DNA of 64,000 nt, taken from contig CAJNDT010000513.1 of the NCBI GenBank assembly GCA_905221615.1, positions 372,001 to 436,000 on the forward strand, written 5' to 3'. The DNA comes from Symbiodinium sp. CCMP2592 (Eukaryota > Sar > Dinophyceae > Suessiales > Symbiodiniaceae). A program made the translations under genes and the position numbers. Shown here piece after piece: positions 3,366 through 61,704 of the stretch (its first letter is position 1; each line of letters opens with the position of its first letter). The notes under the pieces were generated by a model that saw nothing but the letters and a program-made list of their open reading frames with translations, had not been told where the DNA came from and ran no database searches.

Positions 3366-3653
3366 CTGATTCTGCCAGTTGCGGAACCACACTCTGAAGT
3401 TTCCAAGGTTTTGGCGTTCGCTGTCGGGATTTTTTCTTAGTTGCTGAGTTCATAAGGCCCCCAAAAGTGTACACTTCTAGTTTTATAGTTGGTGATATTG
3501 TCCCAAAAAGTGCAAAGTGTATCCACTCAGCTACTAAGTTTTTGGCTGCTAGAAACCCAGAGAGCCCCATATGCCTCAGTTACGGACTACGTCTCCGCTC
3601 TATATACCTCAAACTCAAAGGAGCGATATCAACATGATGGCTTAAAGGCCTAG
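3366..3653 (+). CDS. two-exon hypothetical gene split by a family B introner (3366-3439, 3539-3653)
   Basis: Exon 1 follows TTCATTGTGAG and reads LILPVAEPHSEVSKVLAFAV, ending TCT TA. The 99-bp family B element (3440-3538) begins GTTGCTGAG and ends CAGCTACTAAG. Exon 2 takes over in phase and reads FWLLETQRAPYASVTDYVSA and onward to TAG at 3651-3653. Joined, the junction encodes FSYFWLL, giving a hydrophobic segment (VLAFAVGIFSYFWLL) that could span a membrane. This is one of the cleanest cases of a palindromic element acting as a complete intron. The product is unknown, and upstream exons are probably missing from the model. Confidence 0.55.
3437..3538. mobile_element. palindromic element family B, GT..AG introner (8 copies)
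   Basis: About 100 bp with terminal inverted repeats CTTAGTTGCTGAG / CTCAGCTACTAAG and an inner AAAGTGTACACTTTT hairpin. Both strands begin GT and end AG (GTTGCTGAG..CTACTAAG, or GTAGCTGAG..CAACTAAG). Copies: 3437-3538, 15449-15549, 19771-19870, 33320-33421, 37271-37371, 38224-38322, 51291-51391, 61174-61275. Two copies sit between phase-compatible exons. Confidence 0.9.
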
Positions 3654-6752: not shown

Positions 6753-6779
6753 CACATTGCACCGACGGTGAGAGCCATT

Positions 6780-6888
6780 CCCAGACCTTCCAAAATCCCT
6801 TAATTAAGGAATATACCTTAAATCATAGTAGGATCCCTAATATGATTTAAGGTATTTTCCTTAATTAAAGGATGACGGAAGGTCTGGG
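6780..6888. mobile_element. palindromic element family A (9 copies)
   Basis: About 109-bp hairpin with near-perfect arms: CCCAGACCTTCCAAAATCCC, then TTAATTAAGGAATATACC and TTAAATCATA, loop with GGATCC, mirrored arm ending GGTCTGGG. Copies: 6780-6888, 7682-7851 (internally duplicated), 9278-9391, 10465-10573, 14298-14406, 27560-27668, 42811-42921, 49416-49524, 60486-60593. High identity among copies suggests recent spread. The copy at 7682-7851 is flanked by GTAG and TAG between exon-like islands. Confidence 0.9.
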
Positions 6889-6998
6889 TTGAACAATTTA
6901 TACGCTTAATCGGCTAGTTTCTTGACCACTCGAACACTCGAAGCATTCACCTACCCTAAACCCTAACCCTCAACCCTGTTCAATGGCGAACTATCAAG

Positions 6999-7191: not shown

Positions 7192-8051
7192 GTTTGCGAT
7201 TTAGGGCATAAGAGGTTAGGGCCTGAAACTTTAACCCCAAGGGTCCAAGTACTTAATAATCATATACTCTCCAAAATCATAACCTACAAAACTACTATCC
7301 TAAAACCGAATACCTAATTATTGGGTCCTTTGGACCCTTAGGGTAAGGGGCTTAGGGTTTATTGGGAATTGTGAAACTTTAGGGGGTTTAGGGTTTACTG
7401 GGAATTCCAGGATCTAGAAGTAGATCCCCAAATTTGGGGCCCTGTGCTAATTTGGGGCCCTGTGCTACTAAGGGCACTTTACAGGAACCCCCATTAGGGG
7501 ATCTGCTTTTTGGGATCCTCCCAGGGGTCTGAATCTCTCTTCAACAACCGGGCCCCAAAAAGTTCAAACTTTCTAAGATAGAGCTATTATATAAGGCCGA
7601 AAAGTTTAAAGTTCCACCGTTCACTATCTAAGGAATTGGGGCTTAGTGCAAGATTCATGGTACCGGTGGCCGGTGAAGTAGCCAGACCTTCCAAACTCCC
7701 TTAATTAAGGAATATACCTTAAATCATAGTAGGAATTCCTGCTATGATTTAAGGTATATTCCTTAATTAAGGAATATATCTTAAATCATAGTAGAATTCC
7801 TAATATCATTTCAGGTATATTCCTTAATTAAGGGATTTTGGAAGGTCTGGGTAGCCTTCGTCTGGGCTGTTTGGTTCCCACTCTGGGAGCGAAGCTTTGT
7901 TCCGGCTTGGGATTTAGGATTCAGGGTTTTGGGCTTAGGATTTAGGGTTCAGGGTTTTGGGTTTAGGGTGTTGGGTTCAGGGATGTTTTCGCACCCGTGT
8001 TTCGCGAAGCCTTTTGGCCGTAGAGTGCGAAGCCCTGCTACAGATGTTGAG

Positions 8052-8459: not shown

Positions 8460-11400
8460 AATAACTAGAATAGGGTCTCGAGTGATGTTGTACATTAGTA
8501 TATATTAGAACTCCAAGGAACCCTCACAGGATGGTGTTACCAATTATTCAGACTCCGGCATTATGATAGCGATCGTCACTAGCATATCAATACCAGTACC
8601 GTTGTTGTGAGTGCTGGTTCTCTGCAACCAACCATGACCACAACATCCCCGCATGTTGCTCCTGGCTAAAGCAGCCCTGCCAGCGAAGAGTTCCGGTCAG
8701 TCGCAGGGCAAAACCCACCCCAAACCTCGCGGAATGGTTACGGTTTAGTTTTTTTTGTTTATGGGCCCTTTTCGAACTGCAGAACAGTTAGAATTCCTAT
8801 ACTAGGAGGAGCCGACGGTTTAGGGCTTTAGGGCTTTAGGGTTTACGTAGTTTTGGTACGTATTTCAGCATACTCCCCATAGATCCATTTTACAGGTCTC
8901 TGCTGTGGCCCCGGCGTTTGAGCGCAAAGCTCCGTGCCACCCTCCTTCTTTTCCAGAGCCTGAGGATGACTGTTTATAGGATCCTTAAGGGAGGGTGGTT
9001 CAAGGGGGGACGGTATAAGGATTCCTTAGGGGACTGTAAGGGAACCTTAGGGAGAACTAGGGATCACTAGGCTATATACCCCCCTTGGACCCCCCTCCCT
9101 TAAGGATACTACAAACTGAGGACTCAACCAAAGGGGTGTTAGCCTAAATCATAAGGGCCCTTAGGGGGGGGTAGGGGGAGGGGTGGTGTAGGAGGCCTTA
9201 CCATAAAAAGGACCTAGTAAGGCCTATCTAAGGAAGTACGGTCCCCTACCCCGCTCCCCCTTTTAGCCACCCAAGGGCCCAGACCTTCCAAAATCCCTTA
9301 ATTAAGGAATATACCTTAAATTAAATCATATTAGGGATCCTACTATGATTTAAAGTATATTCCTTAATTGAGGGATTTTGGAAGGTCTGGGACTAAGTGT
9401 GCAACTACGCAAATATCCATCTCCCTTAACTGTCCATCTATCCATCCATCTATCTGCCTGCCGATTTACCTTCGCACTTCCCCCTGCGGTTCTTCTTACT
9501 AGTATCCCCGAAAAAACCAAAAGATGCACTCACAAACCATTCTTCGAGCATTCTTCAAAATATACCAAAGGCTACCTATATAACCTGCCTTCCTTTTGAT
9601 TGTGTCAAGCCCTGGAGCCAACCATCTGAAGCTTACGACCCTAAACCCTGTTCCCTTTTGAAGGGTTCCTTTAAAGGGGTCTACATAAGGGATGTATAGT
9701 AGGGTTCTATAATGTAGGGGCCTCAATAATTAGAGCAGGCTTTTTGGGCCCATTATACTAGGTGGTTATGATAAGGAACCCTCAAAATGGTATAGGTAGT
9801 TATTAAGGTCCCTATATTGAACTCCAAAACGCTAAACTGCCCAACGCCAAGTCACGAAACCATGGAAGCCTCAAGCAACAGCCACAAACACCAAACTCCT
9901 AATCTCACAAACACACTCTACCCATGAACCACAGATGTCTCTACACTACAAGACGTCTGAACAAACACTGTCGACAGAACAGCCCATGAAATCCTACAAA
10001 CCATCAGCAGTCTTTTTCTTCGGGAAAGAATTCGGTATTCAACATGTTACTACACTACGCCACACTCCACTACAATACTCTACACTATATACAAAACACC
10101 CTAAACCCCAAACCCAACACCCCAAACCCCGAACCCTACTATACCACAAGCTCAACAGTTGAAACCCTGAGGGTCGTGCTCGGAAGTCCTCGACGACCTG
10201 GGGCAGATCCACTTGGAGGGTCGGGAGACTTAGTAAGTAGGTAGTAAGTAGACTTATAAGTACCCTACAAGGGACCCTAATTGGGGTTATGGTACTTAGA
10301 AGTCCCTAAAATAACCAGTTACTAAGTCCCCCGACCCTCCAAGCAGCGCTATCCAGTTGCATGCAACGTATTTTGGAGGGGCCTTGGGCTTCCGATGTAG
10401 GGGTTTACCCTAATCCTCCAAAGTAGTTCCTTTTTGGGGTTCATATATGGAATCCTATAAAGTACCCAGACCTTCCAAAATCCCTTAATTAAGGAATATA
10501 CCTTAAATCATATTAGGGATCCTACTATGATTTAAGGTATATTCCTTAATTAAGGGATTTTGGAAGGTCTGGGGGTTTACCCTAATCCTCCAAAGTAGTT
10601 CCTTTTTGGGGTTCATATATGGAATCCTATAATGTAATCCCAAAAAGGAACTACTATGGAGCCTCTGGGTAGGCTTTAGGATTTGGGGTTTAGGTGTGAC
10701 GGGGGTGTCGTAGGGGGTTGCTAAAGCTTACGAGGGTTCTTTAACGGGGCTTTATGAGGGTGTACTCATGACTTTTCGAGGGTGTTATGAAGGGTTCTAT
10801 GGAAGTTTCCGAAACTTAGGGGTACCCTATTTGGGGGGTCTTTATAATAAGGATCCTGCTATTTAGGGCACTATATTAGGGTCCCACCATTTTCGGAAAC
10901 TCCCTTTTCGGTGTGTTGTAGGGGCCTGAATAATTTGAATAAGGTTTGGGTGCCCGTTATATTGTAGCTAGACTAAGGAATCCCCAAAATAGTATAGGTA
11001 TTTACTTCGGCTTCTATATTGTGCAGGGGTGCCTATGGAATTTTAGGAGGGCAAGGAGCTGCAGGGCTTCAGGGTGTTCGGCGTGACAGGATAGAAAGCG
11101 GATTAGGGTTTAGTTTTGAACATAAGGGGATTTCAATTATAAGGGGATTTCAAAGAACTCTGGCGTTTGTACAGTCGCACAACATGTGCTCGGAAAAACA
11201 GCAAAGACAAAAAACATAGCAAAACAAGCGAACATTAAATCTAGGACTCAGCACCTGAAGCAGTAACCCGAAACCCGACTAAGATGCCTGATCTCAGGGT
11301 GTCAAGTCTCTCAGGCTTAAGGACTTAGGAATGTAAGATAAATGGGCTCAGCGATTGGAGTTTTACGGTTGTTGTCCGGTTGCTTGCAAGACGAAAAAGT

Positions 11401-13029: not shown

Positions 13030-15190
13030 CAACATTACTAAGTATAGCGTTTGTACTTTGCACTCCGACTCTCCGACAAGAAATAACGGTTGTAATAGAG
13101 GAGCCTGAGTAAACCGAGGTTTCTCCCTAAACCCGAAACCCTAAACCGTGTCTGGTTTAGGGGGTGCGTTTCTGGTTTAGGGGTGCCAGGTACATGCTAG
13201 CGAAGCTCTCCATGCTAAACCGTATGAGCCCGAAAGAGGCTGGCGCCGCATTTGGAGTCTTTTCCTTGTGATGGAAGTCACAACAATATAAAATAATGCT
13301 TCCTTTATTATTGTCCCAGCCCCCGGCCCCCCTAAACCTAAACCCAAAAATCCTCAACCCTCCCCCCCAAAAACCCTAAACCCTAAACCCAAACATCCTA
13401 AACCCTAACCCCCCCCCCACCACCCCAATTGTTTCCGGTGCGTCTTGGAGACTGGAGGCCTCTTTGAGGCACATCAACAGTCCCCTACGGACTCTTGCGC
13501 GTGAGACGAATCTAGGGGCCAATTACTAGACTATAGGGCTTTGGGGGTTTATTATACTACAAGTATAACAAGGAACACCTCAAAACCCTAGTCTAATTAT
13601 AAAGGCCCCTGTATTGATGTAGGAAGGAGCCCTGGCTTGCTTGCTGTTTTAGGGTTCTGAACTCTGAATGGGAACTCTAACGCTTCCGAGGGCTTGGAAA
13701 AGGCTCATTACACTACTTGATACCATCTGCCAGTCGCCAAGCCTTGTAGCCTCTTGCCTGCTTGGCGCTGGTCGCCTGCAAGTTTTCGGCTGGAAAACTC
13801 GCGTCGGTAGGGGTTTCTAACCCACGGGATTCAACGGATCCAAGTAGCCTGCATGCTTAGGGGTATAGGGTATGGGGCAGGGGCTTTGTTTACGGCTTAA
13901 GGCTTCTTTCTGTTGAGAGAGGGGAAAGTTATCCAGAATCTGGGGTTTGGTGTGAACGATGTATGGCTCAAGACTTAGAGTAGCGGCAGACCCCCCTATA
14001 GGCAGACCTACTTGGACCCGTGGCGGTTGTCGTTATACCTTTGGGAGACCGCTGAAGAGCAGAGTTCCTCCGGCACATGCCGCTCAGCACGAATCGGAGG
14101 TGACATAAGGTTTACCTTAAGCCGGAATAACCTACCTTTGTAAGGACTTATATAAGGAAATCATAAGAAGGAACCCTAAAAAGGTAGGTTATTCCGGCTT
14201 AAGGTAGGGTTTAGGGATCCTGTTCACGGAGCATTGAAAAATTCGATGCATGGTGGCGCCATGCCGGCGCTGGCCGTTGCACTCGGAAGTTGTGCATCCC
14301 AGACCTTCCAAAATCCCTTAATTAAGGAATATACCTTAAATCATATTAGGGATCCAAATATGATTTAAGGTATATTCCTTAATTCAGGGATTTTGGAAGG
14401 TCTGGGTTGTGCATGCTCGGTCAACTTACGCATGTATGCAGAACCGCTTCTCTCTCCGTCTGTCCATCTGCCTGTGTGGCACACTTTTCTATGGCAGTAT
14501 ATAGGGACCCAGAAAAGGACCTAAACAACAACCATAAGGCTGGGATATCCCAGAATCCACTCTTTAATTAAGCCAATGAGACAATATCCCACCCGAAAGT
14601 TTATGCTTGGGTGCTTCTTTGGCTCCTGAGTATACTTGGCCAGCCCGACATGCTGATATCTCCAAGGGGAAGCAGGGGTAGTTGCTCAAGTGCGACTGGG
14701 CAGTGGGTTTCTCCGTTACAACGACTTAAATCTGAATCTCCCAAACCGGGCACGCACTTAATGATTAGAACAGGGTTTTGGGGGGTTCCTTTAAAGGGTT
14801 CACTAAGGTTGCCGGACCCAAAAAGGGATTAGGGTTTAGGACTTCGAATTTAAAACCCAAGGATCCACAAGCAAGGGTTTAGGGTTTAGGGTGTACGGTT
14901 TAGGGTTTAGGGGCAGTAGTAGCTATACTCGCAAGGTCTTGCTGTGCGCCAAGCTATTGGTTATAGGATCCTGCTTCGTGTCCAGTTATTCTTGCCCTAA
15001 GGGTCCATGTACCCAAATAGTATATTAAATATACTTTGGGCCCAATGTATACCTACATAGGGAGTACTTGAAGGACAATGTATATACTATATGAGTAAAT
15101 GGACCCTTCGGGTTGGGGAATATGGGAGGTATCCATGGTGCAGGGTCCTGATGAGAGAGCCATGAAGCCAGGCCTGCCATGGATTGGGAG
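13030..15190. other. repeat-rich stretch without a supported gene
   Basis: CCCTAAA tract (13130-13420), family H (13512-13612), E (14113), A (14298) and K (14998) elements. A short open frame at 14611-14760 (LLSILGQPDMLISPRGSRGS) could be an exon but lacks clear borders. Confidence 0.5.
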
Positions 15191-15227: not shown

Positions 15228-15574
15228 TAGCCCGTCTTATCGATGATGCTATAGTTCGTGATCCCCACCTCTGTCGCCAAACCCTCAAAAATGGAAGCCC
15301 AGAACGTCAACCGCACGAGACGGTAGGGTTGAAAGGGTCTGGGGCCTTAACAGTAACACCAAACTCCACAGCCCAGACCCATGTCACGTTGAGAAACTTC
15401 TACACTGGCAACTGCCAGCAGCCCATGGACGTGGGTAAGGCAGCTCCCTTAGTTGCTGAGTTCATAAGCCCCCCAAAAGTGTACACTTTTGGTTTTATGG
15501 TGGGTAGTATTACCTCAAAAAGTGTGAAGTGTATCCACTCAGCTACTAGGCTCCTAATCCGCTTCTATGCAAGG
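15228..15574 (+). CDS. exon pair around a family B introner (15228-15451, 15550-~15574)
   Basis: Exon 1 follows a textbook acceptor (CTTTCTCTTTATGGTAGTTG then TTTCTAG) and is open for 74 codons: ARLIDDAIVRDPHLCRQTLK, SGALTVTPNSTAQTHVTLRN, FYTGNCQQPMDVGKAAPL. Two ends are possible: the strong donor GTGG|GTAAGG at 15435, or TTA|GTTGCTGAG at 15452 where the family B element begins. If the latter, the 98-bp element (15452-15549, ending CTACTAG) is removed and APNPLLCK follows in phase before TAA. No family recognised. Confidence 0.5.
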
Positions 15575-15867: not shown

Positions 15868-16327
15868 GTAAGCTTTGCTTACTTGTCCAGTATCCTAGAG
15901 GGACTACAGGTTGATCCTGGAGACTGTACAAGGATTCTGGTGGCCCCAGTATGCCTGAAGGTTGTCTATAGTTCCTTTTTGGGATTACTTTATAGGATTC
16001 CATATATGAACCCCAACTAGACCCAAGAGTAAGCCAGGCATAAAAAGGATGCCCTTTTTGGTTTAAAGGGGCTTATAAGGGAACCTGAACCCTAAAAAAG
16101 GGAATAAGGGCTTACTCTGGGTCCTAGCCAAAAAGGAACTACTTTGGAGCCTTAGGGTAAGCCTCACAACACAGGCGTTGGAGTCGAGCTGTGTGGTTGT
16201 GTGGAGGGTCAGATTCTAGACATTCGGGTTCACACATCATAGCCCGCTACATATTTTGCAGGGTTTAAGGCCCGTTAACTCGAAGCCCCTGACGCCTCAA
16301 GGTTCTTCAAAGCCGCAATGGCGAAAC

Positions 16328-19266: not shown

Positions 19267-20286
19267 GTATACTTCGACATGTGCTATGGTTCGTGCTGTC
19301 TTTTCTGTTGTGTGAACGGGGTGGGGTTTACGGGCTTGAGATTTGGTGAATTAAAGATTTCGGGTGTTCTTTGAGTTTCAACTTTCCGAGCTTTCGGCGA
19401 CAAACTTCATGCCAATGCTAGCTCCAGGCCGACTCCTGGAATTAGGGGTGCATCGCCATTACCGAAGCCTTGGGTGAGGGTCGGAGGATGTAAACACACA
19501 TCAAAAATCACAAAACAGGCATCTCTGCAAACTTGCAGCAGCTTGATCCTCGAATCTTGAGTCTAACATAGGGGCCTTAAGAATTAGCATGGGGTTTCGG
19601 GGCCCATTCTTACTATAGCTACATAAGGAAGCCCCACAAAACAGCTTGGTAATTATTTAGGCCCCAATGTTGGGGTACGTCAGAGTGTCGGGTGAAGCTT
19701 CAGCGGTAGAGGTCGGAAGAGATCCTGATAACACTGAGAGTCCCCTTTGTAAACCACAACCCTATTCCCCAGTTGCTGAGTTCACAAGGCCCCAAAAGGT
19801 GTAGACTTTTAGTTTTATAGTGGGTGTTACTATCCCAAAAAGTGTAAAGTGTATCCACTCAGCTACTAAGCCTTTGTAAACCACAACCCTATTCTATCTC
19901 TTCAGGCCCCTTACTCAGGGCTTTGTCGTAAGAGATCCTGAGATAGCATGGCGAGTTAACGACTGACTCAGGGCTATGAGAAGTTCAGGAATCTATACTG
20001 AACTTAGAACCCTAGCAAAAATCATAATTTTAGCTGTTTCTTAAAGATTATAATAACGAAAAATTAAAAACTATTTCTAAGTACCCCTAAGGACTGACTC
20101 AGGGCTGTGAGAAGCTCTCGAATGCCTTGATCTGCTCTACAGCAGCAACAGCCCTCGTTGAAGGGATTACAGTAGGGTCTTGTGTGTTCAGGGTAATTAT
20201 GGTATCTTAAAGTGTCGGGTCATCCTATGCCGAAAGCCCACTCAAGTGCCCTGCAACCCTAGGAACTGCAACCCTGACTGGCCCAG

Positions 20287-20440: not shown

Positions 20441-21900
20441 GTAGGTGCTCATTCCGTACTACTCCGCGTCAAAAAAGACTCCAAGCCCTGAACTAAGAAC
20501 TCCAAACCCCAAACCAACCCGGTTTAGGTTTTGGGGTTTAACCCTTTTAACTGCTACGGTATGAAATATCATCGGCTGTGTATGTTGGACATCGCTGCAG
20601 ATAAACAGCAGGTCAGGAATCCATGTGGTTTGCAGCGAGCAGATTGGCAACAGAATTGAACCTGGAAAGCTAGCTTTGGTGGTATAGTGTCATGATTTAT
20701 ATTGATTTAAACAGTGCGGAGGGGAATGTTGTTGCCAACTATTTCGGCTTCTAGATTACACCCTAAAACGCATTCTCAACTTGCAAGACATCCGGCCTTT
20801 TGGACGAAAACCCAACCTTAAGGGTCCAAGTGCCGAATCATCATATACTCTGCAAAGTAGTAAGCTACATAACTACTGCCCCTAAACCCAAGCACCTAGT
20901 TATCGGGTCCTATAAACCCTTGTGGCAAGCTTTAAAATGACAGCACGAGCGATCTTTCGCCTGAAGAAGGGGCTCTTGCCACTCAAAAGAAGCCCATCGT
21001 GTTCAGGGTTTTGGGGGTTTAGGGTCTGTAGGGCTTAAGGTTTAGGTGTTGAGAGCAAGGTGGCTTAGGGTCTATTTTGGGTTTGGGGTTTACCAGGACC
21101 ACCCAAGTACTCTTCCTTTGCTCTATATTTCTCATTAAGAGGTACTTAGGGGCTACAATAAAGGGTAGTTGGGGGGTCTAGGTAGAGCGCTGCGGTCTAA
21201 GGCTGACGGATTCTGATCTTGTTTAGGGTGCAAGTATCCAACGAGTGGGGTTTTGGTTTGGGTCCCAAGTACTACCTAGATACTGAAGGGTACTACCGTT
21301 TCGCGATTGCCTTCTTATCTTGGGAAAGGCTACAGACTGGAATAAAGCTTTCCAAAAACAAATACCAAACCTTCAGGGAACCACATAATATATAGGAAAC
21401 CGTTCGAAGGGTATTATAGAGTGCAGGGTATGCTCATCGTAGAAGCCTTGTGTAGTCGGATCTTGACAACAAATCAACCACGCATTTTCAGAGGCACAAC
21501 AGCCGTGACGAATTCCATCATTAAGTCCACACTCATCATCCAACCTAAACCCTGAACCCGCACATCTCTTACTACCCCAATAAGCCACAGGAATAGAAGG
21601 TTAAACTTTCCGATTCTTACTAAACTACAAGAACCCAGAAAGTTTAAAGGTTGGGTATCGGAGATCTAAGATCTTGAACCCTTAAAGCACCCAACCCGGC
21701 AACCGGGGCTGCGCAGAAAAGGGTCGAATCCATGGCTTCCTAGCCTTTCTGGAGCTCAGGGAGGACCCTTCTTTTCAGAAAATCCTGCAGCTTCGCGGAT
21801 CTCCGCCGAAGCTAAACGACCGTCCAGCAAACCTTCCAGGCAATCAAGTTTGAATAATCTAGTCGCCTTAACAATTAGAATGAGGTGTTGGGGCTAATCA

Positions 21901-27308: not shown

Positions 27309-28354
27309 GTCTGCACGGACGAGCATCATCTAGGGGCCGTAATGACCATAGAATGGGTTTGGGGGATAGTACACACGAAATTTAATAAGGAACCCCCAAA
27401 ACCCTGTTCTAGTTACTCAAACCCCTACATTAGGCAACTTAGGCCTTTTGTCTGCCTTTGTGTGTGTGTGTGTGTGCATGCGTGACGATGCATGTGAGTG
27501 TCTGTCTCGGTGCGCGCGCGTGTGCGCGCTGTGTCCCGAATGCACAACAGAAGGGATCCCCCAGACCTTCCAAAATCCCTTAATTAAGGAGTATACCTTA
27601 AATCATATTACGGATCCTACTATGATTTAAGGTATATTCCTTAATTAAGGGATTTTGGAAGGTCTGGGCCCATTGGCAGGTCCGGTCCGGGCTGTCAGGG
27701 TGGAGGCAGTTGACGAGGCCTTCTTGCCAGCAATAATGTGGTCTCCCGATTAAGAACCCGCCCCCCGTGAACATCCTGAATCCGCTTTAGTGACGGGGAG
27801 GGGGGGGGGGGTCCGCCTCTCTGATCATCTTTAGCCGTGGTCTAAGTTTCTATTTTTCAAAACCTTAAAACAAAAACCAGGACGGGAATTTACACTATGG
27901 AGGGGCAGTGTATTATTGTGTGCAGGGCCGTGCTCAGCTTTATTGAGGGGCCTGAACTAATCAATCAGGAGATAACATTATGAAAGCTACAACAGGGGTT
28001 GAGGATTCAGGATGTTCGGTTTCGGATTCTTGGTTTGGAGGTTTATGTCACGGCGCAGGGCTGAGTGCTACATTCGCGTTTTGCAAACAACACGCTCCAG
28101 TTTATCCGCGTTGTACGATTACACGTACATGTATACCAACACATGTTCATAATATGGGTGGTCGTCAAAATTATGGTCCTTTTTGGGGTCCTTATTATTA
28201 TGGTACGACACCTAATATTTACGGTACCCAAACAGGGACCCTAATTTTGACAACCACCCATATGTATTCCATGCACGCGCGGATGTCCATAAGGTAGCAA
28301 TATCCGCCCAAAGCCAGAACAGACCCTAAAGCTGAAACAAGTCCACCGAAGCGT

Positions 28355-31223: not shown

Positions 31224-33417
31224 TAACTCCCAAACACTTCCAGGAGCGGAATTGTAACACAACGAGCCCTGCCTAGCCCTAACCCAAAGTACACCCCAAC
31301 AACCACCTGTTTAAAGCCCCAACGTGCTTCCCCACACAACGACCAGACCTCTACAGTGCGACTCATTTCAGCAGCAGCAATGCAGTAGGAGGAGGAGGAG
31401 GACGAAGACTACCCGTGACCCCAAACCCTACAGAATAGTAGGTTATGATCCCCCAAATTATAGGGTCTGACCGAAAACAGCAGGTTTTTGGATCCCCGGG
31501 TAGTACTAGTACTACTGCACTGACACCGGCGACGGCGACGACTGTCAGGCCTGTGAGAGGTGCTCGCGCACCCTCATGATGGAATTTGTTTGGTCCTGGG
31601 TCACTGTATGGTTAAGGGCTCAGGGTATCGAAGTTTCACGGCTAAGGGTTCAGGGCTACATGTGGCGTAATTATTAGTGTTAAGGGTTTAGGGTTCAGGG
31701 ATGTTCAGGGTATAGGAGCTTGAGGATTAAGAGTTCCGGCCTACAGATACGAGGAGACCAACCGCCCCAAAAAATAGAAAGAAAGCCTGCTCGTGACATT
31801 GACCGAGGAAATACACTATAAACCCTTAAAACCCTTATCATAGATCCCATATAGCCTCTTTAACTACTATTTGCTTAAGAGCCCCCAAAAAATAAAAAAA
31901 AATATTCCTCATAGGGATAATATAGGGATTATCATTTTTTATTTTTTGGGTGGTTCTTAAGCAAATAGTAGTTAACGAACCCTTAAAGGAACCCCAAAAC
32001 CCAATATATGGCCGAGGATCACTCACGTAGACCAGTCGGCGAGCCGCATATTTGCAAGCCTCCAGCGCGGAGGTTCTGGGGTTCAGGGTTTAGGGGTTTA
32101 GGAGTTAGGGTTCAGGGTTTAGAGTTCAGGGTTTATAGGGTTCAGGGTTTAGGGTTCAGGGTTTGGGGTTCAGGGTTAGAGTTCAGGGTTTAGGGTTGGG
32201 GGTTTAGGGTTCAGGGTTTAGGGGTTTAGGGTCTGGGGTTCAGGATTTAATCGTCTAATGCAGGGGCCTTGATAATTAGACTAGGGCTTTGGGGGGATAG
32301 TATACTATAACTCTAAAAGGAACCCCCAGAACCCCGATTAGGAGTTTCCGGTTTTCCCTCAACTGCCCTGGAACTAAAGCGCCAAACTGCTACTTTAGGT
32401 TTGAGGTTTAGGGTTTAGGGTTTGCAGGTTGAGAGTTGGTTTCCGAGTTTTGGGGAGAAGGGCCATAGTGCCTGAGGGTCCCAGCATTGTAGGGGTGCTT
32501 GCAGGGTCTCACGTCTAGGTCCCGAATTTTGCGACTCTCAGAAACACTGCTCTTTAGGCCTATGCAACAACCGGTGGAAACCGACAAATTGTAAGGTTGT
32601 AGATCTGTCGAAACCCTACATCACTCTTATAGCTTATGAAATCCTGGAATACTCTTCCAATCCTATACGACTCCTTCGAACCCTGCAAACCGAACCCCCC
32701 TGAACCCTAAACCCCCCGCATCGTATCATACTGGGCTCTTTTTGAGCAACTGAGTGTACGTTACCATGAACAGAAACCACACGATGTATGAATTTACTAT
32801 GGAGTCCTACTTGTTGTAATACTATCAAGTGGTCTGTATGTACTATATACTTATACATATGTGCACGGTAACTTGGTCTAAGTTACATGGTAACTTAACA
32901 AACCTTTAGGGCAACTTATCATACCGAATCATACTTTAACTACTTATATATGAACCCTAAACCCTGAAGCCTAGACCTTAAACCCTAATCCCTAGACCCT
33001 GAACCCTAAACGCTAGACCTTAAACCCTAAACCCTAAAACCTGAACCCTATACCCCCTTAGCAAGAACCCCTCTCAGCCAGGCCCCTAAATCATAGTTTG
33101 GGTACCCTTCAAAACGTAAAAAGTTGTCCAACTACCAGGGGTCTTGGTATCCTCTTCTACACAGCGGTTCTAGGTTCAGTGTTTAGGGTCTAGGATTTCC
33201 AGAACCCCCCCAAGTACCCTTTGAAGGGCTCTAATATCTCCCACTAAGAGGGAATTAGGGGCTACAGTAAAGTGTACTAGGGGGTCTAGGTATCCCCTCA
33301 ACCCGAAACACTGAACAGCTTAGTTGCTCAGTTCATAAGGCCTCCAAAAGTGTACACTTTTAGTTTTATAGTGGGTGATATTATCCCAAAAAGTGTAAAG
33401 TGTATCCACGCAGCTAC

Positions 33418-33482
33418 TAAGACAGTGGCCTGGGGAAGGAGCTTCTTGAAGACCTGGTCCCTTGCCAGCTTTTCGGCCCTCC
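33418..33482 (-). CDS. exon abutting a family B introner
   Basis: On the minus strand a very pyrimidine-rich tract (33486-33520, mostly C/T) ends TTTGCACCGCAG. The exon reads RAEKLARDQVFKKLLPQATV L and ends TTA|GTAGCTGAG, the other terminus of the family B element at 33320-33421. The plus strand is also open here (TVAWGRSFLKTWSLASFSAL), with an acceptor at the element's CTACTAAG end, so strand is not settled. I favour minus because of the polypyrimidine tract and the helical Lys/Glu pattern. Confidence 0.4.
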
Positions 33483-34125
33483 CTGCGGTGCAAACCGGGT
33501 GGAGGAGGGCGGGGGGGGGTGGCTGTAAGGGCTCCCTTTAAGGGTTTAGGGTAGGGTTTAGGGTTTAGGGTTTAGGGTTTGGGCGGCTACACGGGCTCCT
33601 TGCCTTTAAGGGTGCCTTTCGGGGTAGTATGGAGTTCTAGAATATGGCTCCCTTTACCGGGGGAAGGCTTGCTGTCACTGTAGGTCTTCACGGTTTAGGA
33701 TTTGAGTTCCTTAGGCTTTAGGTCTTGAGGGATTTAGGGTGCAGGAAATTTTGCTCAACTCGGAGCAAAACTTCGCGAATGAGCTTGACTAGAGCGGTTG
33801 ACTCGGGGTTTGAGGATTACGGATTCTGGGTTCAGCGTGGGGCTTAGGCTGCTGTTGGCTTGCTTTGCTCTCCTAAGTGCTTCGAGATAGGGGCCATACA
33901 ATGTGAACTATGCCTGGGCTGCAGGGCGCTCACCTCCTCCCACCAAAATTCTACCACATTTCTCACCGTCTGAGCAGACCATCATGCCGAACAGCGTACC
34001 GAATCGGTCACATTGCGAATGGCATGAACTTCCCCGCTTCCCCACCCCAATGCTTCAGCAATTGCAGAACCGAAGGTTTCAGGGAGATTCTCAAGACTGG
34101 ACTTTGAAGTAACCATGGAGAAAAA

Positions 34126-34297
34126 AGTATATAGACTTTTATTTCATAATGGTTCCTTCAAAGTATAGACTTTTATTTCATAATGGTTCCTTCAAAGTAT
34201 AGACTTTTATTTCATAATGGTTCCTTCAAAGTATAGACTTTTATTTCATAATGGTTCCTTCAAAGTATAGACTTTTATTTCATAATGGTTCCTTCAA
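34126..34297. repeat. five-copy 34-bp tandem expansion inside a family S element
   Basis: AAGTATAGACTTTTATTTCA then TAATGGTTCCTTCA repeats five times almost perfectly. The related element at 62760-62840 has this segment once, and the relative at 28790-28870 also once, so the array expanded inside the element. Confidence 0.9.
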
Positions 34298-34369
34298 GGA
34301 ACAGGTACCAAAAAAAATATTCAAGTATGGTACTCCTAACCCAGGATGATCGCTTCCCAGACTCATCAG

Positions 34370-37227: not shown

Positions 37228-38671
37228 CAGGTTTAAAATTTTGCGTCTATGGTCTTACCTTTGGTGTAGCTTAGTTGCTGAGTTCATAAGCCCCCAAAAG
37301 TGTACCCTTTTAGTTTTGTAGTGGGTGATACTATCCCAAAAAGTGTAAAGTGCATCCACTCAGCTACTAAGATAGATTAAGTAAGGGCTTAAACTTAAGC
37401 AAACTTAAAGGTTTCATGGTACTGGAGGGGTCTCGCGTTTAGGAATTTTGGGCTGTTGGGTTTAGGGTGGCGGGGATGGAGGCCTTCATCGCCTACTATA
37501 GGGGCCTTGATAATTAGAATAGCGGGTCCCATTATACTATAATCATAAAAAGCAACCCCTCCATAGAATTGGTAATGGAGCATTCTTTAGGCCCCATCTG
37601 TGGGCTGAAACAGCAATCCTGAACGCTAAACCCCTAAGCCCTGACACTCAAAACCAAAACCCTAAACCCTAAAACCCTAAAACCCTAAACCAAAACCCTA
37701 AACCCTAAACCCTAAAACCCTAAAACCCTAAACCCTTAAGCTAAAGAAATCCCCGACCCCTTTGCAAGTCCGCAGCCGGAAACCCCGAATCCCAAACTCA
37801 AAAGACAAAGGAGGGACCCTTAATAAGGACCCCTAAATATAAAATGGGGACCCCCCAAGGAATCTATACTGAACTTAGAACCCTAGCAAAAATTGTAATT
37901 TGAGCTGTTTCTTAGGGATTATAATAACCTAAAAAATCAAAAGTTGTTTCTAAGTACCCCTAGGGAATCCCAAACCAAAATCGCAAGCCCGGACCTGGTG
38001 TCGAGCTCCAGCAGGGGGATGCCACAGAATGTTGTGCCTGTTGCCTTGACCTGGTGTTAGGATTAGGGGGACCCTTGGGGATATAGACCCTCTCAGTAAG
38101 GTCCCCTTTAAGGGCATAAGTGGGGTTGAGAAGGGTCCCCTTTGAGGGGTCTCCCTAATACCACCTAGGATGACCTGGTGTTGAGATGCTTGGCGTGAAA
38201 AAGGGTTTGGGGCTACATTATACTTAGTTGCTGAGTTCATAAGGCCCCCCCAAAAGTGTACACTTTTAGTTTTATAGCGGATGAAATTATCAAAGTGTAA
38301 AGTGTATCCACTCAGCTACAAGTATAAGGGCCATAAGAAACTGTGGCCTGCGGCTTAGGGGTTGGAGGGTTCTTGCATAATTACGGACGGCTAAGGAACA
38401 ACTGACAAGGCTTAGGGCCAGGATATACCAGGACCTGCTAAAAGCGTTTCAGATTCCTCATTGGGCAATTAAGGGCTACAGCAAAGGGTAGTTGGGATCT
38501 AATGTAGGAACCTGATTAAGAAACCCTGAGCCCATAACACCAAAATAGTAGGACTCATATAAGGAAGCCTAATAAAGGCCCAAGGTTTCTCAATTCTAAA
38601 CCCACCCTAAACCCTAGGTAGGGTTTGGGGATTTGGTGCTGAGAGGGATGGGAATTAGGATATACTCATAG

Positions 38672-40224: not shown

Positions 40225-40967
40225 CTCCCAGAAAAAAAACACAAGGGCCCAGGAATTCACCCTTAAAGAAGACTTTGTAGGCTTCTTAAGTAAGATTTTT
40301 CCTGAGAATATATTGGGCATCTGATTCCGATTCGAGGTATTACCCCAAGGGCCCAAAGGACGCAATCATTAGGTACTCGGTTTTAGGATAGTAGTTATGT
40401 AGGTTAGGATTTTGGAGAGTATATGATTATTCGGTACTTGGACCCTTGGGGGAAGGAGAACTCCGCGGTTGCAACCCTTAGTGTCTATTAGAGTTTTGGG
40501 GTTTAGGGGTTTCGGGGGGGTTTGGGGGGGTTTGTTTTTTTTTTTTTTTCGGTGGGTTTGGGGTTCAGGGGTTTCGGGGGCTTTGGGGGTTAGGGGTTCA
40601 GGGGGTTTAGGGGTCTAGGGTTCCGGGAGGTGCCTAAAACAAACCATTCACGAAGTCGTGGGTTTAGGATAGCATTACTGTTGTAGGGCGAACGCCCAAA
40701 ACCATACACGAATGAGGAGTTTCCGAAAAAAGGGGACCCTAATATAGTACCCTAAATAGTAGGATCCTTATGAAAAGGACCCCGAAATAAGGTACCCTGA
40801 ATTTTTCGGAAACTCCATCAGAGCCTTCAAGGGATTTCCTTGGGTTTCTTAAAACTCTCTTCTTCAACAACCGGGCCCAAAAAAGTTCAAACTTTCTAAG
40901 AGAGAGCTCAGATACAAGGCCAGAAAGTTTCAAGTTCCCCCGTTCACTATCTAAGAAAAACTTCCGG

Positions 40968-42712: not shown

Positions 42713-44599
42713 ATAGGAGCCCGACTTCTGATGGATTGAGGGGCGTCTTGAGAATGCACACCGTTTCGGCATAGTCACAACGGATATTCAATTTAGGGCG
42801 TTGGGGCTCGCCCAGACCTTCCTAAATCCCTTAATTAAGGAATATAAACCTTAAGCCATATTAGGGATCCTACTATGATTTAAGGTATATTCCTTAATTA
42901 AGGGATTTTGGAAGGTCTGGGACCCTAAACCCTAAACCGCACAACCCATGGATCGAAAGAGGCTACCTGAAGCTACGGACGTGTCGTCAGGCTCAGCTTC
43001 TCGCCGGTCCGAGGTTGCCTTTTGACTTTCCCAAAGGGTGTTATGTACTGTTATAGGGAATACTTCCCCAAACCATAATAGTAATTCCCAATATAGAAAC
43101 CCTACATTCTACTATATCGGTACTTTGGACCCTATGGGTTTTGATGGGATGCACCAGGCTGCCAGCATTCCACTGCTTTAGAAGGGTTCTCAATTAAGCT
43201 GAAACTGGAAACAAGTGCAATATGTAGACTTTGTAATATGTACCCTATCCCTCCAAGGACCTCATAGTTAGGGCCCTAGACCCCTTAAGGACCCCATAAT
43301 GAGGTCCCTGGAGGGCTAGGGGTAGACTTAGGGTTTAGGGCTTCGGATACAACAATACAACCATAACTTCCAGCGAGGCCTGGGCTGCACAGGCGAGGTG
43401 GCAAAATGTCTGCCTCCAGCAAAAGTAGCTTTTGCGCTTCATAAACTAACCCAAAAGCCCAGGTAGGGTTTTGGGGTGTTGGGTATACCTTAACACTGAA
43501 TAACCTACCTGTCTTAGGGTACCTTATTATGATTTCCTTACATACGTCCTTAAAAAGGTAGGTGCCTCCGGATTAAGGTCGGGTTTAGGGTTTAGGGTTT
43601 CGGGTCCCCAAGGTCCAGGAGACACGGTAAGACGCAACCCCATTCTCAAAGTTGAGCCCCAACCCCGAAACCCGACGCTCCCATCCCTTTAGATCATGAA
43701 AAAATTGACTCTTAAAAAAAAGACTCTATATAGACCGCCGAGTACCTGAACTCGCTCTCAAAAGTCTTTGCATTACGACCAGTATCGTCATATTTCCTGA
43801 CCAAGGGCGTGCTCTGTAAGAACCAGCGACCTTTGCGTAAGGAGTCCTGTTTGTGACTACCCCACCTAGCTTCATCCCATGGACCCCGTCGATTTTCAAA
43901 ATAAGGGTTCGGATGTAGGCAGTCGACATGTAGGTGTATATATATATATATATATGTGTGTGTATACATATATATATATATGCATAATGTACGTTAACAT
44001 ACTATAATGTACCATCATATGCTACAGCGGTTGAAGGTCTGAGGCGCTTAAAAGTATTTATGAAGAGGCACCTCTATCCTATAGGAGCCATAAAAAGAAA
44101 CCAACAAGTTTCCCGAAGTGCCACCCAAGACGTATTTTAAGGGGCACTATTTGGGATCTAGGAGTTTCCTTTAAGGGCAGTCCAAAGGGTAGAAGGAGAG
44201 ACCCTTAAGAAGGACCCCTAGGTATATACCCTTAATGTGGCTATTTTATGCCCATTATATAGCCCATTATAGGGTAGGGGTCCCCATTAAGGGTCCCTCC
44301 TTTTCCCCTTTGACTTAGGGGTCCTTCACAGGCCGCTAAGGACGGTAATGTAGTTGGAGTCCCTGGGCCAAGGGATCCCGGAAGTCTTGCTCTGGGACTT
44401 TAGTTCATTCCCTAAGGGTCCAGGTATCTCTTTACGAGGGTCCGGGATGTCCTAGGGAGAGCCCTTGGTTCTCTTTGGGGTCTCAGAAACCCTCAATTTT
44501 GAGCCCTTAGGGTTGCCATTAGGGGTACCTGATTTTTGGGTCCTTATAATAAGGATCCTACTATTTAGGGTATATGGGACTATACTAGTTCATTGTTGG

Positions 44600-48823: not shown

Positions 48824-50089
48824 CCGCGTTTTGTGTAGAAGGCCCTTCTCTTCCCTCCAGCAAAGGGCCTAGGGTTTACTAGTTCATTGTTGGGATAGGA
48901 TTAAAAATGTACACTTTTATTCCTTATTGGGTTCAAGTACCCATATAGACATGTAAAGTGTTACCCAACTATGACAAAGTCTAGGGGTTCAGAGTATCAA
49001 ACCCCGTACCTGCTCCATATAAAAAAACGACATGTAGGGCTGAGACGATTTAGACGGATTGGGTTTAGGGTTAAGGGCTCCTTATTAATTATATGCGTTC
49101 CATTATGTGTTCCCTACCTACATACCCAAAGGCTCCATGCACCCATGTAGCAGGTACTTAGGCCTTAAAGTACTTATATAGGGACCCTTTAAGGACTAAG
49201 TACCTACTATATGGGTACATCCTTCGGGATACACTCTGAAGCCCCAAGTAATAGACACCTCCTTATTATATGCGTTCCATTATGAGTTCCCTACCTACAT
49301 ACATTCTGAAGCCCCCTAAACCCTAAACCGCCAATAAACGCCGGACGAGTCCCGGGCATGGAAGAGGTTGCACGCCTTCAGCGCTTCCTGACGGCAAAGA
49401 GCGGATGCAGGGCTTCCCAGACCTTCCAAAATCCCTTAATTAAGGAATATAACTTAATTCATATTCGGGATCCTACTATGATTTAAGGTATATTCCTTAA
49501 CTAAAGGATTTTGGAAGGTCTGGGTTACCCAAAGGCTCCATGTACAGCAGACTCCAAAAAGTTGTAAACCGGATTAAGGCCAAATAGTGCTGGGATTCCC
49601 TCTAGATTACTCTTGAGCATTGAGGCTATGGGGCTTCCAACGTTTAGGCTTCTACTGTACCTTTATAGTAGATACTTAAGCTTTGAAGGGGTCACTATAT
49701 AAATCTAATATAGGTACTTTAAGGCCTAAGTATATGTGTGTATATATATATATATATATGGAGCCTTAGGGTGATTTCCCTGCGCCGATCACGCCCTAAA
49801 GCTACCTGAGTACACGCCCCGACACTCTACAAAGCACATCTCTGAGATCAAAGTTTCCAGTTCGACCTAAACCCGAATGCCCCATGAACCCTAGACATTC
49901 CTAAACCCTACCCTAATGCCCCATAAACCCTAAACATAACCCCAAGCCCCCAAACCAAACCCTAAACCGTTCCGAGGCCTCGATAAGCTGCCACCAAAAA
50001 CCCTGTAAAACAAAACAAAAATTCCATAGGGGTTTAGGGCTTCAAGGGTTTTGGGGTTCCGGGTTTACGGGCCTAGAGGTTTAGGGTTT

Positions 50090-50362: not shown

Positions 50363-51532
50363 TAGGATTTGTCAGGCTTGGACCTCTGAGGCTTATTCCG
50401 TTCTGGTCTCTAGGGATGTCGTGCAAGTTGGGTTTGGGTCCATCAAATCAAGGTCGCCCAGCTGCTGTCTACTATCTCCAGTTTCCCATGTCAAGGAAGC
50501 TCTAAGAAAGCAGGAATATCCTAACTAACCAGCCTAATCAAAACATGTGTTATCAGCACCCCCGCTGCAAAAGTTTGTTGCGAAGGGTCTGCAGAACACT
50601 GCTCTTGTCGTTTGGATGGAACTTAAGCGTGATTCCGGTAGCCAAACTTGCTCTGTCTGCTCTGGCAGTTTGAGGAGCCTCTCTACCTCTGCGCCCGTGT
50701 CGTCGTAAAGATCGCGATATCTTGGCGCTGAGAACCGTATCAAACCGCCTGAAAAACCTGTAAAACCCCTAAACCCTAGTCCGACAACAACACGAGTGCC
50801 AAAACTAAACCCTTATATGGGAGTTTCCGAAAACAGGGGACCCTAATATAGGACCGTAAATAGTAGGATCCTTATTATAAGGACCCCAAAATAAGCTACC
50901 CCCAATTTTCGGAAACTCCCATATAAGCCCTTTTATCTTGAGTTTATTTTCAACCTTGGTCTCTGCTTCGCTTCAGAGTTGATATACGGACAGACAACCT
51001 TTAGGGTGTAGGGCTCTCGGGTTTGGGGTCCGAGGTCTAGGATGGTCCGCTGTAAGGATCAGCGGCCTTAGCAAGTAATAAAGGGATCCTAAACTAAAGA
51101 TCGGAATTGTAGGGTGTATAGGCTGTTTAACAGAGCTTTGTACAGGGCCTTGGTGTAGGGAGTCTTTTAGCTGTTAGAACAGCGTTATGTTAAATCACGC
51201 TTGCTTTGAAGGGTTCTAACTGGGCTTCATATAGGGGCCTCGATGACTAGAATAAGGCTGGGGCAGATTCAGGGGATGTTACTGATTACCTTAGTTGCTG
51301 AGTTCATAAGACCCCCAAAAGTGTACACTTTTAGCTTTATAGTGGGTGGTACTATCTCACAAAAGTGTAAAGTGTATCCACTCAGCTACTACGTAAATCT
51401 AACACCCCGAAGACCCTGAGAACCCTGAAACCATTTAGGGTACATAACCTACTTACGAAGCCCAGGGATTACGAACTGTACAATCGACCCGGGTTAGGAG
51501 CCGTGGAGCCACCCTGAACATAGCTTTCGACT

Positions 51533-52189: not shown

Positions 52190-52285
52190 CTCTTCAAGAA
52201 CCGGGCCCCAAAAAGTTCAAACTTTCTGAGACAGAGCTCATATAGAAGGCCAAAAAGCTTAAAGTTCCCCCGTTCACTATCTAAC
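52190..52285. mobile_element. palindromic element (3 copies plus a fragment), CAAACTTTCTAAGA arms
   Basis: CAACCGGGCCCCAAAAAGTT..AAAGTTCCCCCGTTCACTAT. Copies: 7535-7635, 40855-40955, 52192-52285; a diverged relative at 21600-21655 has AAACTTTCCGATTC / AAAGTTTAAAGG arms. Confidence 0.78.
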
Positions 52286-52395: not shown

Positions 52396-53597
52396 AGCTT
52401 CGTAGTCTCCATTGTAGTTCCTTTTGTTGGTTTAACCAAATATATAATTAGGATCCTAGAAGGTAACCCCAAAAAAGGAACTACGGTAGAAGCCAGAAAG
52501 TTGGAATGTGATTATCCTAACCCTTCTATGGTAACTTATAGGGTATCCTACCATGAAACCATTTTCCAACTTTCTGGAGTTCCCTTTATACTATAATGCA
52601 AACAGCTTCGGTCCCAGGGATCCTGGTTTCAAGCAGAAAACAAGTTCTAGGCCTTGGCTCAAGGGTTGACGTTTGCAAGCTCTTGCTGCTGAACCAGGGT
52701 TTGGGGGTACCTTTAAAGGGATCGTTTAAGGGTTCCTATAAAGGGATCAATAAGGGTTCTATAAAGGGATTTAGGGTTTTGAGTTTGCGAAAACTCGGGG
52801 TACCTTATTTGGGTCCTTTTTAATAAGGATCCTACTATTTGTAAGGTACTATGTGAGGGTCCCCTATTTTCGGAAACCCTCCATTTAGGCTATCATGTCG
52901 AGCTGTTGCAAATTTCTGGAAATTTCACTGTTGGGTTCAAAGCTTTTGTGCATCTCGAGTTGCGGGGATATCGAGTCTATGTTATGCAAGTCTTGAGGCG
53001 CTACTTGTAGGATGATTTGGATGCTCAGGTCAACCCAGACAAAGCTGTAACACTGTAAACTCATGACACCCCCTTCACGATTTTCCAGAAGCGCCCTTAA
53101 AGCAAGCTATTAAGACCACTTGTGTATCCAGGTTTGTGCTCCTGAGGCCGCTACAGATTCGTCACCGTCACTTGCCGCACCTGGCAATATCGGAGCTAGC
53201 TTGAGGAGCTTTGAAGTTTAGGGTTATGTTTCCTAGGATACCCAGTAACCTAAGAATAAAAAGGCCTCTCTTTTTGGTATTGGGTAACTTTATAAGGAAC
53301 CTAGGACTACAAAAAGGGAATAAGGGTACTACTGGGCATCCTAGTTGAGGAGCTTTGGGTTTAGGGTTATGTTTCTGTGGAGCGGTTTGTCTCAGCTGGG
53401 GGCTCCCAGGCGCCGTTTCTGGGAACTTGGGGACTCGTCTTCAGCCCATTGGATATATGCACGTGCCTCGAAGAGGCTGTTCATGAATAGCTGTCTTCCG
53501 GCATAGAAATGACGACCCTAAAGCTTTGTAAAGTGTAGAGTGCTCAGTACTCAAGCTACGAGTTTGAAGGTATTTCAGGGTGTGGGCGTATGGGGTT

Positions 53598-58150: not shown

Positions 58151-58725
58151 TAATGAGGTCTGTGCTGTGCTGACCATCCTGCCGCAAGACCCGATGAAAG
58201 ATCAAAACTTGACTGGCTTGTGTAAGAAACGGGTTTAGAGTTTGGGGTATAAAGCAATTCAGCAATAGGCCTGCTAAAGTCTGTTTAGGGCTGTAGACTG
58301 CTTCTTTTGAATTAAGGTATAGTCCCTGAACAAGCGGTGTTTGGCTTTATGGTGATGCTTTGGGAAATCAGCTACTGTTGATGGTATAAATCCTGCATTA
58401 CCCATAATAAGGAATATACCGTAATTCCCATCAGGAAGTATATCATCAACCGTTGGAGCCCGCTCACCCGCATTTTAACTCTTAAGCCATTGCGTACCTG
58501 GTTATAACCCAGAGGGTCCAAGTACCCAGATAGTAGGGTTTCAAGCTCCAAAAACCATTCAGAGTATGGATTCTAGGACCTGAACCCTACTATTTCGACT
58601 TGGGCCCTCTGGGTAATGCATTACTATGCACGGGTGCACGAAAAACAGACATCCAGACCAGACAAAAAGCTAAACCGCACTGTCCAAGCAGCTCAGCTTC
58701 TAAGGGTTGGGATTTACGGTCGCGG

Positions 58726-60234: not shown

Positions 60235-61704
60235 CCAAGGGCAGCGTGGTCTAAGTGGACGACGACACGACAACGTCCACGGCCTCTTTGGCGACAAACG
60301 GTCGAGTCCCGAGTCGCGGGCACAAGAGGCTCTGGCAATTTCTCAAGCCCTTATAGCAATGTGATTACCTCTTGCGGTTCCTAAAGTCATAAGGATGCTG
60401 GTCATACGATGTATGCTGATTCTTAAGGCCCTAGATTCAGTGAGGAGGCGCGGTGACCTATGCGGTGGGTTAGCAGCCAGACCGGCCAGACCTTCCAAAA
60501 TCCCTTAATTAAGGAATATACCTTAAATCATAGTAGGATCCCTAATATGATTTAAGGTATATTCCTTAATTAAAGGATTTTGGAAGGTCTGGGCAGCTCG
60601 TCTCTGAATAGTACTTGGAAGTCTCCGACTGCCACTTTGAGGACTTGACCCCGACATTCTTCTTTCGCTCCGTCATGGTGATCGTCCTGCGAGACTGCAG
60701 AATCTCCGAACATGGTTCAGGGTTCGGGGTTTAGGAGAAATTCCCAAATTCTCCTTTGACTCCTTCTCCCAGAATATCCTACCATTTTAGGGACTTTTCT
60801 AAGGAAATCATGATAAGGAACCCCCAAAAGGGTTGCTTCTTCAGGGTCCAGGTAAGCCTTAACACGTCAAGTTCTGAACTCTGAATCACAACACCCTAAA
60901 CTTAGGATGTCCTTAAGGGGGGGTGGTCCAAGGGGGGTAGGTAACCTAGTAATCCCCATTATTCCCCAATACTCCCTAAGCTTCCCTAAGGTTCCCCAAA
61001 GCTCCCTAGTACCCTCCCCCCTTGAACCACCCCCCCTTAAGGATCCTATAATAAACTCGAAAACCCCGAACGAATCCTAAGGCCCTACACCCTGCATCTT
61101 ACACCTCAAAGCATCGAAGCCCTCAATCTGAAACTAAAGTGCTGAACCCTAAATCTCGAACCCTAAGGCCCTCTTAGTTGCTGAGTTCATAATCCCCCAA
61201 ACGTGTACACTTTTAGTTTTATAGTGGGTGAGATTATCACCAAAAAGTGTGAAATGTATCCACTCAGCTACTAAGTAAATCTAAAACCCCGAAGACCCTG
61301 AACACCCTGAAACCCTACATCTGAGACCCAACGGCCATGATACTCTATATCTGAAGCCCTTCCTGAACCCTCGTTCCTACCCGGACCCTAAATAAAACCT
61401 ACGTTTTAGGGCTCGGTGCTATGATGTCCTGAAACAATACCAAATAAAGTAGGTTATATGGGATAAGGTAGACCCTAAAACCTAAACCCCTAAACCCCTG
61501 AGCCCTGAACCCCCCAAGTACCCTTTAAAGGGCTCTAATATTCCTCATTAAGAGGTGATTAAGGGCTACAAAAAAAAGGTAGTTTGGGAGTCTAGGTAGA
61601 CCCTAAACCCCTAAACCCCTGATCCCCTAACCCCTAGACCCCTAAACCCTAACCCCTAAACCCCTCCCCCTGGGGTGAGCCCTGAGCCCTAAAGCCCTGA
61701 ACCC

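What the first reader, a model, noticed from the sequence alone, without database searches (positions are those of the whole stretch)
3366..3653. Family B element is a ready-made intron in both orientations
The ends CTTAGTTGCTGAG / CTCAGCTACTAAG place GT and AG at the right spots on either strand, so insertion in any orientation creates splice sites. At 3440-3538 removal from GT to AG joins two protein-like exons in phase. Copies at 15452-15549 (plus) and 33320-33417 (minus) fit the same rule. Introners are known from dinoflagellates and other protists; a terminal repeat that works on both strands would explain strand-independent spread.
Basis: partly seen in the sequence, partly recalled or inferred. 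Interest (0 to 1): 0.85.

Follow-up and report, generated by a model that had tools for sequence, protein, structure and literature searches.

The report
Strand-locked intron-making mini-transposon in alga

Summary
Family B is real: eight copies of about 103 bp lie in the window, all in one orientation. It is a MITE with 13-bp terminal inverted repeats and a 4-bp target-site duplication (TSD): exact in 21 of 40 held copies, 0.4% expected. B does make introns elsewhere in the genome: in three genes (ankyrin, DnaJ, RCC1-like) removing element plus one TSD restores the expected protein. The 5' splice site then comes from the TSD (GA, GT, GT), the 3' AG from the element end, a mode published for Symbiodinium microadriaticum introners. 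No window copy has such a TSD. New here: orientation is locked. Of 112 neighbouring same-contig pairs, 105 agree, including 78 of 78 within 200 kb, and all 7 switches are convergent. Five other ~100-bp families, chosen because they looked polar, share the polarity. Nearby genes lie on the opposite strand, but more distant gene markers disagree. Splicing is inferred from protein homology, not RNA.

The parts
3436..3538 (+). B copy 1 (the finding), 103 bp; TSD TTTT on both sides (3432-3435, 3539-3542). The orientation that is spliced elsewhere is the minus strand.
3436..3448 (+). left terminal inverted repeat CTTAGTTGCTGAG of copy 1
3526..3538 (+). right terminal inverted repeat CTCAGCTACTAAG of copy 1
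15448..15550 (+). B copy 2, TSD CTCC
19768..19870 (+). B copy 3; no 4-bp TSD but a 24-bp direct repeat CCTTTGTAAACCACAACCCTATTC on both sides
33319..33421 (+).
37270..37371 (+). B copy 5, TSD GTAG/ATAG (one mismatch)
38223..38322 (+). B copy 6, TSD TATA with the element ending at 38322
51290..51393 (+). B copy 7, no clear TSD
61173..61275 (+). B copy 8, no TSD; shares its downstream flank with copy 7

Best explanation
B is a non-autonomous DNA transposon (MITE) of a Symbiodiniaceae-like dinoflagellate, moved in trans by an unidentified transposase that makes a 4-bp target-site duplication. It is also an introner. In an exon, in the orientation CTTAGTAGC...CAACTAAG relative to the gene, the spliceosome takes the first two bases of the upstream TSD as 5' splice site (GT or GA in the three cases) and the AG ending the element as 3' splice site; the second TSD copy restores the reading frame. 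Elsewhere it is an ordinary MITE. Its orientation is locked, not free: copies over hundreds of kilobases face one way, most likely antisense (as named here) to the local unidirectional gene block, which is the orientation in which it splices. Shown: TIRs, TSDs, copy number, orientation coherence, three frame or motif restorations. Inferred: actual splicing, the link to gene direction, and the cause of the lock (strand-directed insertion coupled to transcription or replication is favoured over selection).
For: TIRs and TSD; exact 4-bp TSD in 21 of 40 held full-length copies plus 9 with one mismatch, null 0.4% and 5.9%; exact 5-bp matches 1 of 40 and 6-bp 0 of 40. L037 RCC1-like gene, TSD GTGG, 107 nt: VVTWGHSLF|GGDSSAV continues the gene's own repeat. 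Lock: 105 of 112 same-contig neighbour pairs agree, 78 of 78 within 200 kb, 7 of 7 switches + then -. Genes opposite: the 7 longest ORFs, from 5 loci; Pfam matches in 5 or 6 of the 60 longest ORFs on the other strand against 0 of 60 on B's strand, next tier 0 of 60 against 0 of 60; DnaJ matches within 100 kb 3 of 3 opposite; strand skew p=0.0025 and 0.0003 in 29 loci.
Against: No RNA data: splicing is inferred. Only three exonic copies, one of them (L051) looked at because a DnaJ match lay 486 bp from a B copy. In L047 an in-frame stop stands about 400 codons downstream with ankyrin-like sequence after it. Gene direction far from B does not fit a strict rule: of the 13 DnaJ rows on contigs with a listed B copy, 7 are opposite and 6 the same; at 100-300 kb 2 opposite and 5 the same (three of those five, on C569 and C267, match the 3-62 stretch that recurs with tied scores at many places and may be retrocopies; the other two are weak). 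RRM rows (by eye): C358 opposite, C2 same. Some neighbour pairs (C102, C160, C250) share their upstream 8 bases and may be segmental duplicates. No transposase partner was sought.
Confidence: 0.8

Rival explanations
1. One reading: B carries both splice sites in its termini (GT at base 5, AG at the end), is a ready-made intron on either strand, and spreads regardless of strand.
For: The letters GT and AG are there on both strands.
Against: In the three exonic copies this excision leaves 8 bases and breaks the frame; window flanks are no more open than chance and have no Pfam match; copies are strand-locked.
Confidence: 0.04
2. B is only a MITE; the three exonic copies sit in pseudogenes and are not spliced.
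For: Coding flanks were recognised around only 2 of 40 held copies; the window has no recognisable gene among the ORFs scanned (also no Rfam or tRNA match). In L047 a stop about 400 codons downstream is followed by more ankyrin-like sequence; in L037 the unspliced frame is open.
Against: In L051 376 codons are open after excision and the protein is 90% identical to P0006 over the whole query; L047 is open for 405 codons in the span tested. Two of the three TSDs begin GT and one GA, both reported as dinoflagellate 5' splice sites (PMC11453091, passage).
Confidence: 0.12
3. The orientation lock comes from selection: insertions are random in strand, but copies in the wrong orientation inside long unidirectional transcription units are removed because they carry harmful splice or trans-splice signals.
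For: Dinoflagellate gene arrays are long and unidirectional (PMC11071213, PMC8110479, passages); the locked orientation is the one spliced in the three exonic copies; G as first TSD base is mildly enriched in that orientation (31 of 100 against 17 of 100, p=0.03).
Against: 78 of 78 close pairs agree although coding flanks were recognised around only 2 of 40 held copies; other repeats in the same loci (D16, D19) are mixed in strand, so wrong-strand repeats are not removed in general.
Confidence: 0.35

Closest known systems
Introners of Symbiodinium microadriaticum (Gozashti et al. 2022, PMC9860276; outline and the whole Results section with the Fig. 2 legend read)
   Same: 4-bp TSD, TIRs, 3' splice site carried by the element, 5' splice site taken from the TSD, dinoflagellate host.
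   Different: Sequences were not compared with their families. Here coding flanks were recognised around only 2 of 40 held copies, GA is the 5' splice site in one of three exonic cases, and orientation is locked at the scale of hundreds of kilobases, which that section does not mention.
Introner elements of Amoebophrya, Polarella and Prorocentrum (PMC7789003, PMC11453091, PMC10666404; passages read)
   Same: Intron-like repeats with inverted repeats (8-20 nt) and 3-5-nt direct repeats at the ends; non-canonical 5' splice sites.
   Different: B is one homogeneous ~103-bp family with a fixed TSD length; of Amoebophrya introners only a small part could be assigned to MITE families and their motifs are described as very diverse.
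MITEs (non-autonomous TIR DNA transposons; general knowledge, recalled)
   Same: About 100 bp, non-coding, TIRs, fixed-length TSD, hundreds of copies.
   Different: MITEs are generally taken to insert on either strand; B and five co-resident ~100-bp families do not.
dinoTAD gene polarity (PMC8110479, PMC11071213; passages read)
   Same: Domains are pairs of divergent gene arrays with borders where arrays converge; B switches are always + then -, as expected for elements antisense to divergent arrays.
   Different: The passages read describe genes and Hi-C domains, not the orientation of transposons.

Membership tests
Introner | Group of similar introns whose similarity reaches the splice boundaries at both ends | tested here: met
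   Three exonic copies; element plus one TSD is the stretch whose removal fits the protein
Introner | Insertion into an exon without change to the protein after removal | tested here: met
   L051 join invariant in five homologues; L047 linker length similar in five homologues; L037 repeat motif continued for seven residues
Introner | Removed by the spliceosome in RNA | not testable with these tools
   No transcript reads available
S. microadriaticum-type introner (TSD donor, element acceptor) | 4-bp TSD, TIRs, AG at element end, 5' splice site in TSD | tested here: met
   GAAT, GTGA, GTGG TSDs with ...CTAAG end
S. microadriaticum-type introner (TSD donor, element acceptor) | Sequence homology to the published families | not tested
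   Published family sequences were not at hand
   8 bases remain in 3 of 3 exonic copies
   105 of 112 neighbour pairs agree, 78 of 78 under 200 kb
MITE | Short non-coding element with TIRs and fixed-length TSD, high copy | tested here: met
MITE | Autonomous partner with matching TIRs and a transposase | not tested
   No search was made

The most novel reading that the evidence does not exclude
A class of ~100-bp cut-and-paste-type elements (B, two families with the same 4-bp TSD and CTAAG end in part of their copies, and three more locked families) inserts in one orientation only, dictated by the polarity of the host's megabase transcription or replication domains. The genome's domain polarity is thus written into the strand of its introners, which is why nearly every copy arrives in the orientation that can be spliced.
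Probability: 0.42. Interest if true: 0.85.

Novelty: new variant of a known kind. Interest (0 to 1): 0.64.

Why it matters
Introners are a leading explanation for bursts of intron gain, and how a transposon avoids wrecking the genes it hits is open. If introners arrive already oriented with transcription, many harmful insertions never happen, and strand-directed insertion becomes a testable step in intron gain. The lock would also give a sequence-only way to read the polarity of dinoflagellate chromosome domains, and would be unusual for an element with nearly symmetric ends.

Tried and rejected
Exact B patterns in viral contigs and genome contigs: 0 matches. Rfam and tRNA scans of the window: 0. 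Family A as a control for orientation: unusable, it matches itself on both strands. L043 (TSD GCAA) checked as a fourth exonic case: no clear exon, left undecided. Whole element without TSD as the intron: 273 codons with only 37 upstream in L051, worse than the TSD rule. Kinase (PF00069), peridinin-protein (PF02429) and TCP1 (PF00118) searches and a search for empty-site paralogues of the ankyrin gene were asked for and never answered. Literature searches listed nothing whose title or abstract start mentions the orientation lock, nor did the passages read; the library lacks most subscription papers. Roy et al. 2023 (Curr Biol, cited in PMC11453091) was not read; Huff et al. 2016 is not held.

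Counting notes: two partial hits of 42 were dropped before the TSD count; copy 38223 is scored as a mismatch there because its end was set one base late. Position lists behind one search are truncated: 100 of 166, 100 of 912, 100 of 463, 40 scored of 1248 candidates. Pfam counts by alignment do not name members: L042, L043, L047 and L037 are identified, one more RCC1 member and one 2OG-oxygenase member are not, so 5 or 6 ORFs; the Fisher p=0.027 is for 6. The 60 and 60 are the top of 521 and 538 ORFs. The five locked families were picked from 12 repeat families (at least six copies) because their matches were mainly on one strand; one further one-strand family lies in a single locus, and the other six gave similar or mixed numbers of matches on both strands (palindromic or mixed, not resolved). 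The f41 group had 136 opposite-strand matches but 13 of 13 by the stricter search. In one search the best of several possible right ends was taken.

Full report
What is there. The window is C513:372001-436000 of a 1.098-Gb assembly in 5383 contigs. Family B has eight copies in it, 100-104 bp, with termini CTTAGTTGCTGAG and CTCAGCTACTAAG, a 13-bp inverted repeat with one mismatch. All eight lie in the same orientation, here called plus. Genome-wide the exact 20-base left end occurs at least 912 times (450 plus, 462 minus, not counting copies with C eight bases upstream; control 0).

It is a DNA transposon. In 40 held full-length copies (two partial hits dropped) the four bases on either side are identical in 21 and differ at one base in 9; shuffled partners give 0.4% and 5.9%. 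Exact matches of 5 bp (1 of 40) and 6 bp (0 of 40) are rare. In 100 listed copies the four bases upstream are T/A-rich and C is enriched just before them. No transposase was looked for.

Applied to the window copies, it gives flanks open for 30 codons on both sides in 3 of 8 copies, against 20.6% of 20,000 random positions (P=0.22). The joined translations have no Pfam match. More directly, of a 103+4-bp insertion the rule removes about 99, so 8 bases stay.

But B does create introns. Five homologous proteins (44-52% identity over the N-terminal 110 residues) cross the join through a variable linker of similar length. About 400 codons downstream the L047 frame has a stop with more ankyrin-like sequence after it, so this copy of the gene may be damaged or have a further intron there.

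A second case came from a DnaJ match 486 bp from a B copy. In L051 the excision (109 nt, GTGA...AG) gives 376 codons (140+236) against 237 (1+236) and 69. All five homologues found carry LPLCDDECPD across the join, four of them at 76-90% identity over 97-100% of the query; the fifth (80% over 39%) is named DNAJ1 of Symbiodinium necroappetens, which also supports a Symbiodiniaceae-like host.

A third case, L037, has an RCC1 match upstream of B, and the excision (107 nt, GTGG...AG) gives VVTWGHSLF|GGDSSAV, the same spacing as the sister repeats in that gene. In all three the gene runs opposite to B's named orientation, the 5' splice site lies in the TSD (GA, GT, GT) and the 3' AG is the element's end. 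This is the arrangement published for Symbiodinium microadriaticum introners (PMC9860276, Fig. 2B legend); GA as 5' splice site is reported for dinoflagellates (PMC11453091, passage). In this orientation none of the eight window copies has a 5' TSD beginning GT, GC or GA, so the finding's own copy is best read as a non-coding MITE.

The orientation lock. Merging truncated position lists with held copies gives 307 copies on 195 contigs; of 112 neighbour pairs on a contig 105 agree, 78 of 78 closer than 200 kb, and the 7 switches are all plus then minus. Random strand would give half. A few pairs may be segmental duplicates (same upstream 8 bases on C102, C160, C250), which does not change the picture. 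Of 12 further repeat families in the held loci, five of about 100 bp that looked one-sided were searched again after normalising each locus to B; all are in one orientation: 9 of 9, 7 of 7, 5 of 5, 8 of 8 and 13 of 13. One other one-sided family lies in a single locus; the remaining six match on both strands (palindromic or mixed). Two of the five have 4-bp TSDs and CTAAG-type ends in part of their copies (exact in 5 of 9, and in 2 of 6 with a recognisable start). D16 and D19 are mixed in strand, so the lock is a property of certain elements.

What the lock follows. The seven longest ORFs of the held loci, 253-628 aa, from five loci, are all on the strand opposite to B. Pfam matches at E<=1e-4 occur in 5 or 6 of the 60 longest ORFs of that strand and 0 of 60 of B's strand; the next 60 of each have none. 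Normalised to B, GC skew and T-A skew are both negative in the mean over 29 loci (p=0.0025, 0.0003), as expected if the other strand is the sense strand (inference). DnaJ matches within 100 kb of a B copy are opposite in 3 of 3. Against this, over the 13 DnaJ rows on contigs with a listed B copy the count is 7 opposite and 6 same, and at 100-300 kb 2 and 5; the two RRM rows split one to one (by eye). So the link to gene direction is likely, not proven. Published Hi-C work describes domains of two divergent gene arrays with borders where arrays converge (PMC11071213, PMC8110479, passages); B switches of the plus-then-minus kind are what antisense elements would show at divergent centres, and the absence of the other kind fits contigs that break at domain borders (inference).

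Mechanism. I favour strand-directed insertion: a transposase that reads host polarity through transcription or replication, with an asymmetric element interior. Selection against wrong-way copies is the main rival. The mild excess of G as first TSD base in the spliced orientation (31 against 17 of 100, p=0.03) hints that some selection for splicing may act as well.

Verdict. The element is real; the introner reading is right in kind but wrong in splice rule, wrong for strand-independence, and unproven for the window's own copies. The introner mode is known; the orientation lock was not seen in the listings or in the passages read.

Noticed in passing
window 19744-19767 and 19871-19894: B copy 3 is flanked by a perfect 24-bp direct repeat instead of a 4-bp TSD.
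   Followed up: no
window 51394-51433 and 61276-61315: B copies 7 and 8 share about 37 nt of downstream flank but not the upstream flank.
   Followed up: no
window 19987-20092, 37858-37965, 54471-54566, 62950-63051: Another ~100-bp family (f10), 9 of 9 copies in one orientation relative to B in 6 loci, with exact 4-bp TSDs in 5 of 9 copies.
   Followed up: partly
window 21569-21662 (f8); 7539-7633, 40858-40953, 52197-52276 (f7); 34096-34345, 62741-62846 (f6); 16020-16125, 53244-53346 (f41): Four more locked ~100-bp families; termini and function only partly worked out.
   Followed up: partly
window 34096-34304: 34-bp unit repeated in tandem, lying inside a copy of family f6.
   Followed up: no
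window, whole: Scattered telomere-like TTTAGGG (192) and CCCTAAA (146) repeats throughout.
   Followed up: no
window 6766-6890, 7729-7853, 9269-9393, 10451-10575, 14284-14408, 27546-27670, 42799-42923, 49402-49526, 60471-60595: ~125-bp family, nine copies, matching itself on both strands.
   Followed up: no
window 58692-58704: A lone match to the right terminus of B (CTCAGCTTCTAAG, one mismatch) without a B body found by the profile search.
   Followed up: no
G000 C215, C264, C267, C339, C569, C1201, C3057, C5341: DnaJ matches over the same profile stretch (3-62) with tied or nearly tied scores in open frames at many places, possibly retrocopies or a mobile element with a J domain; the sequences were not compared.
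   Followed up: no
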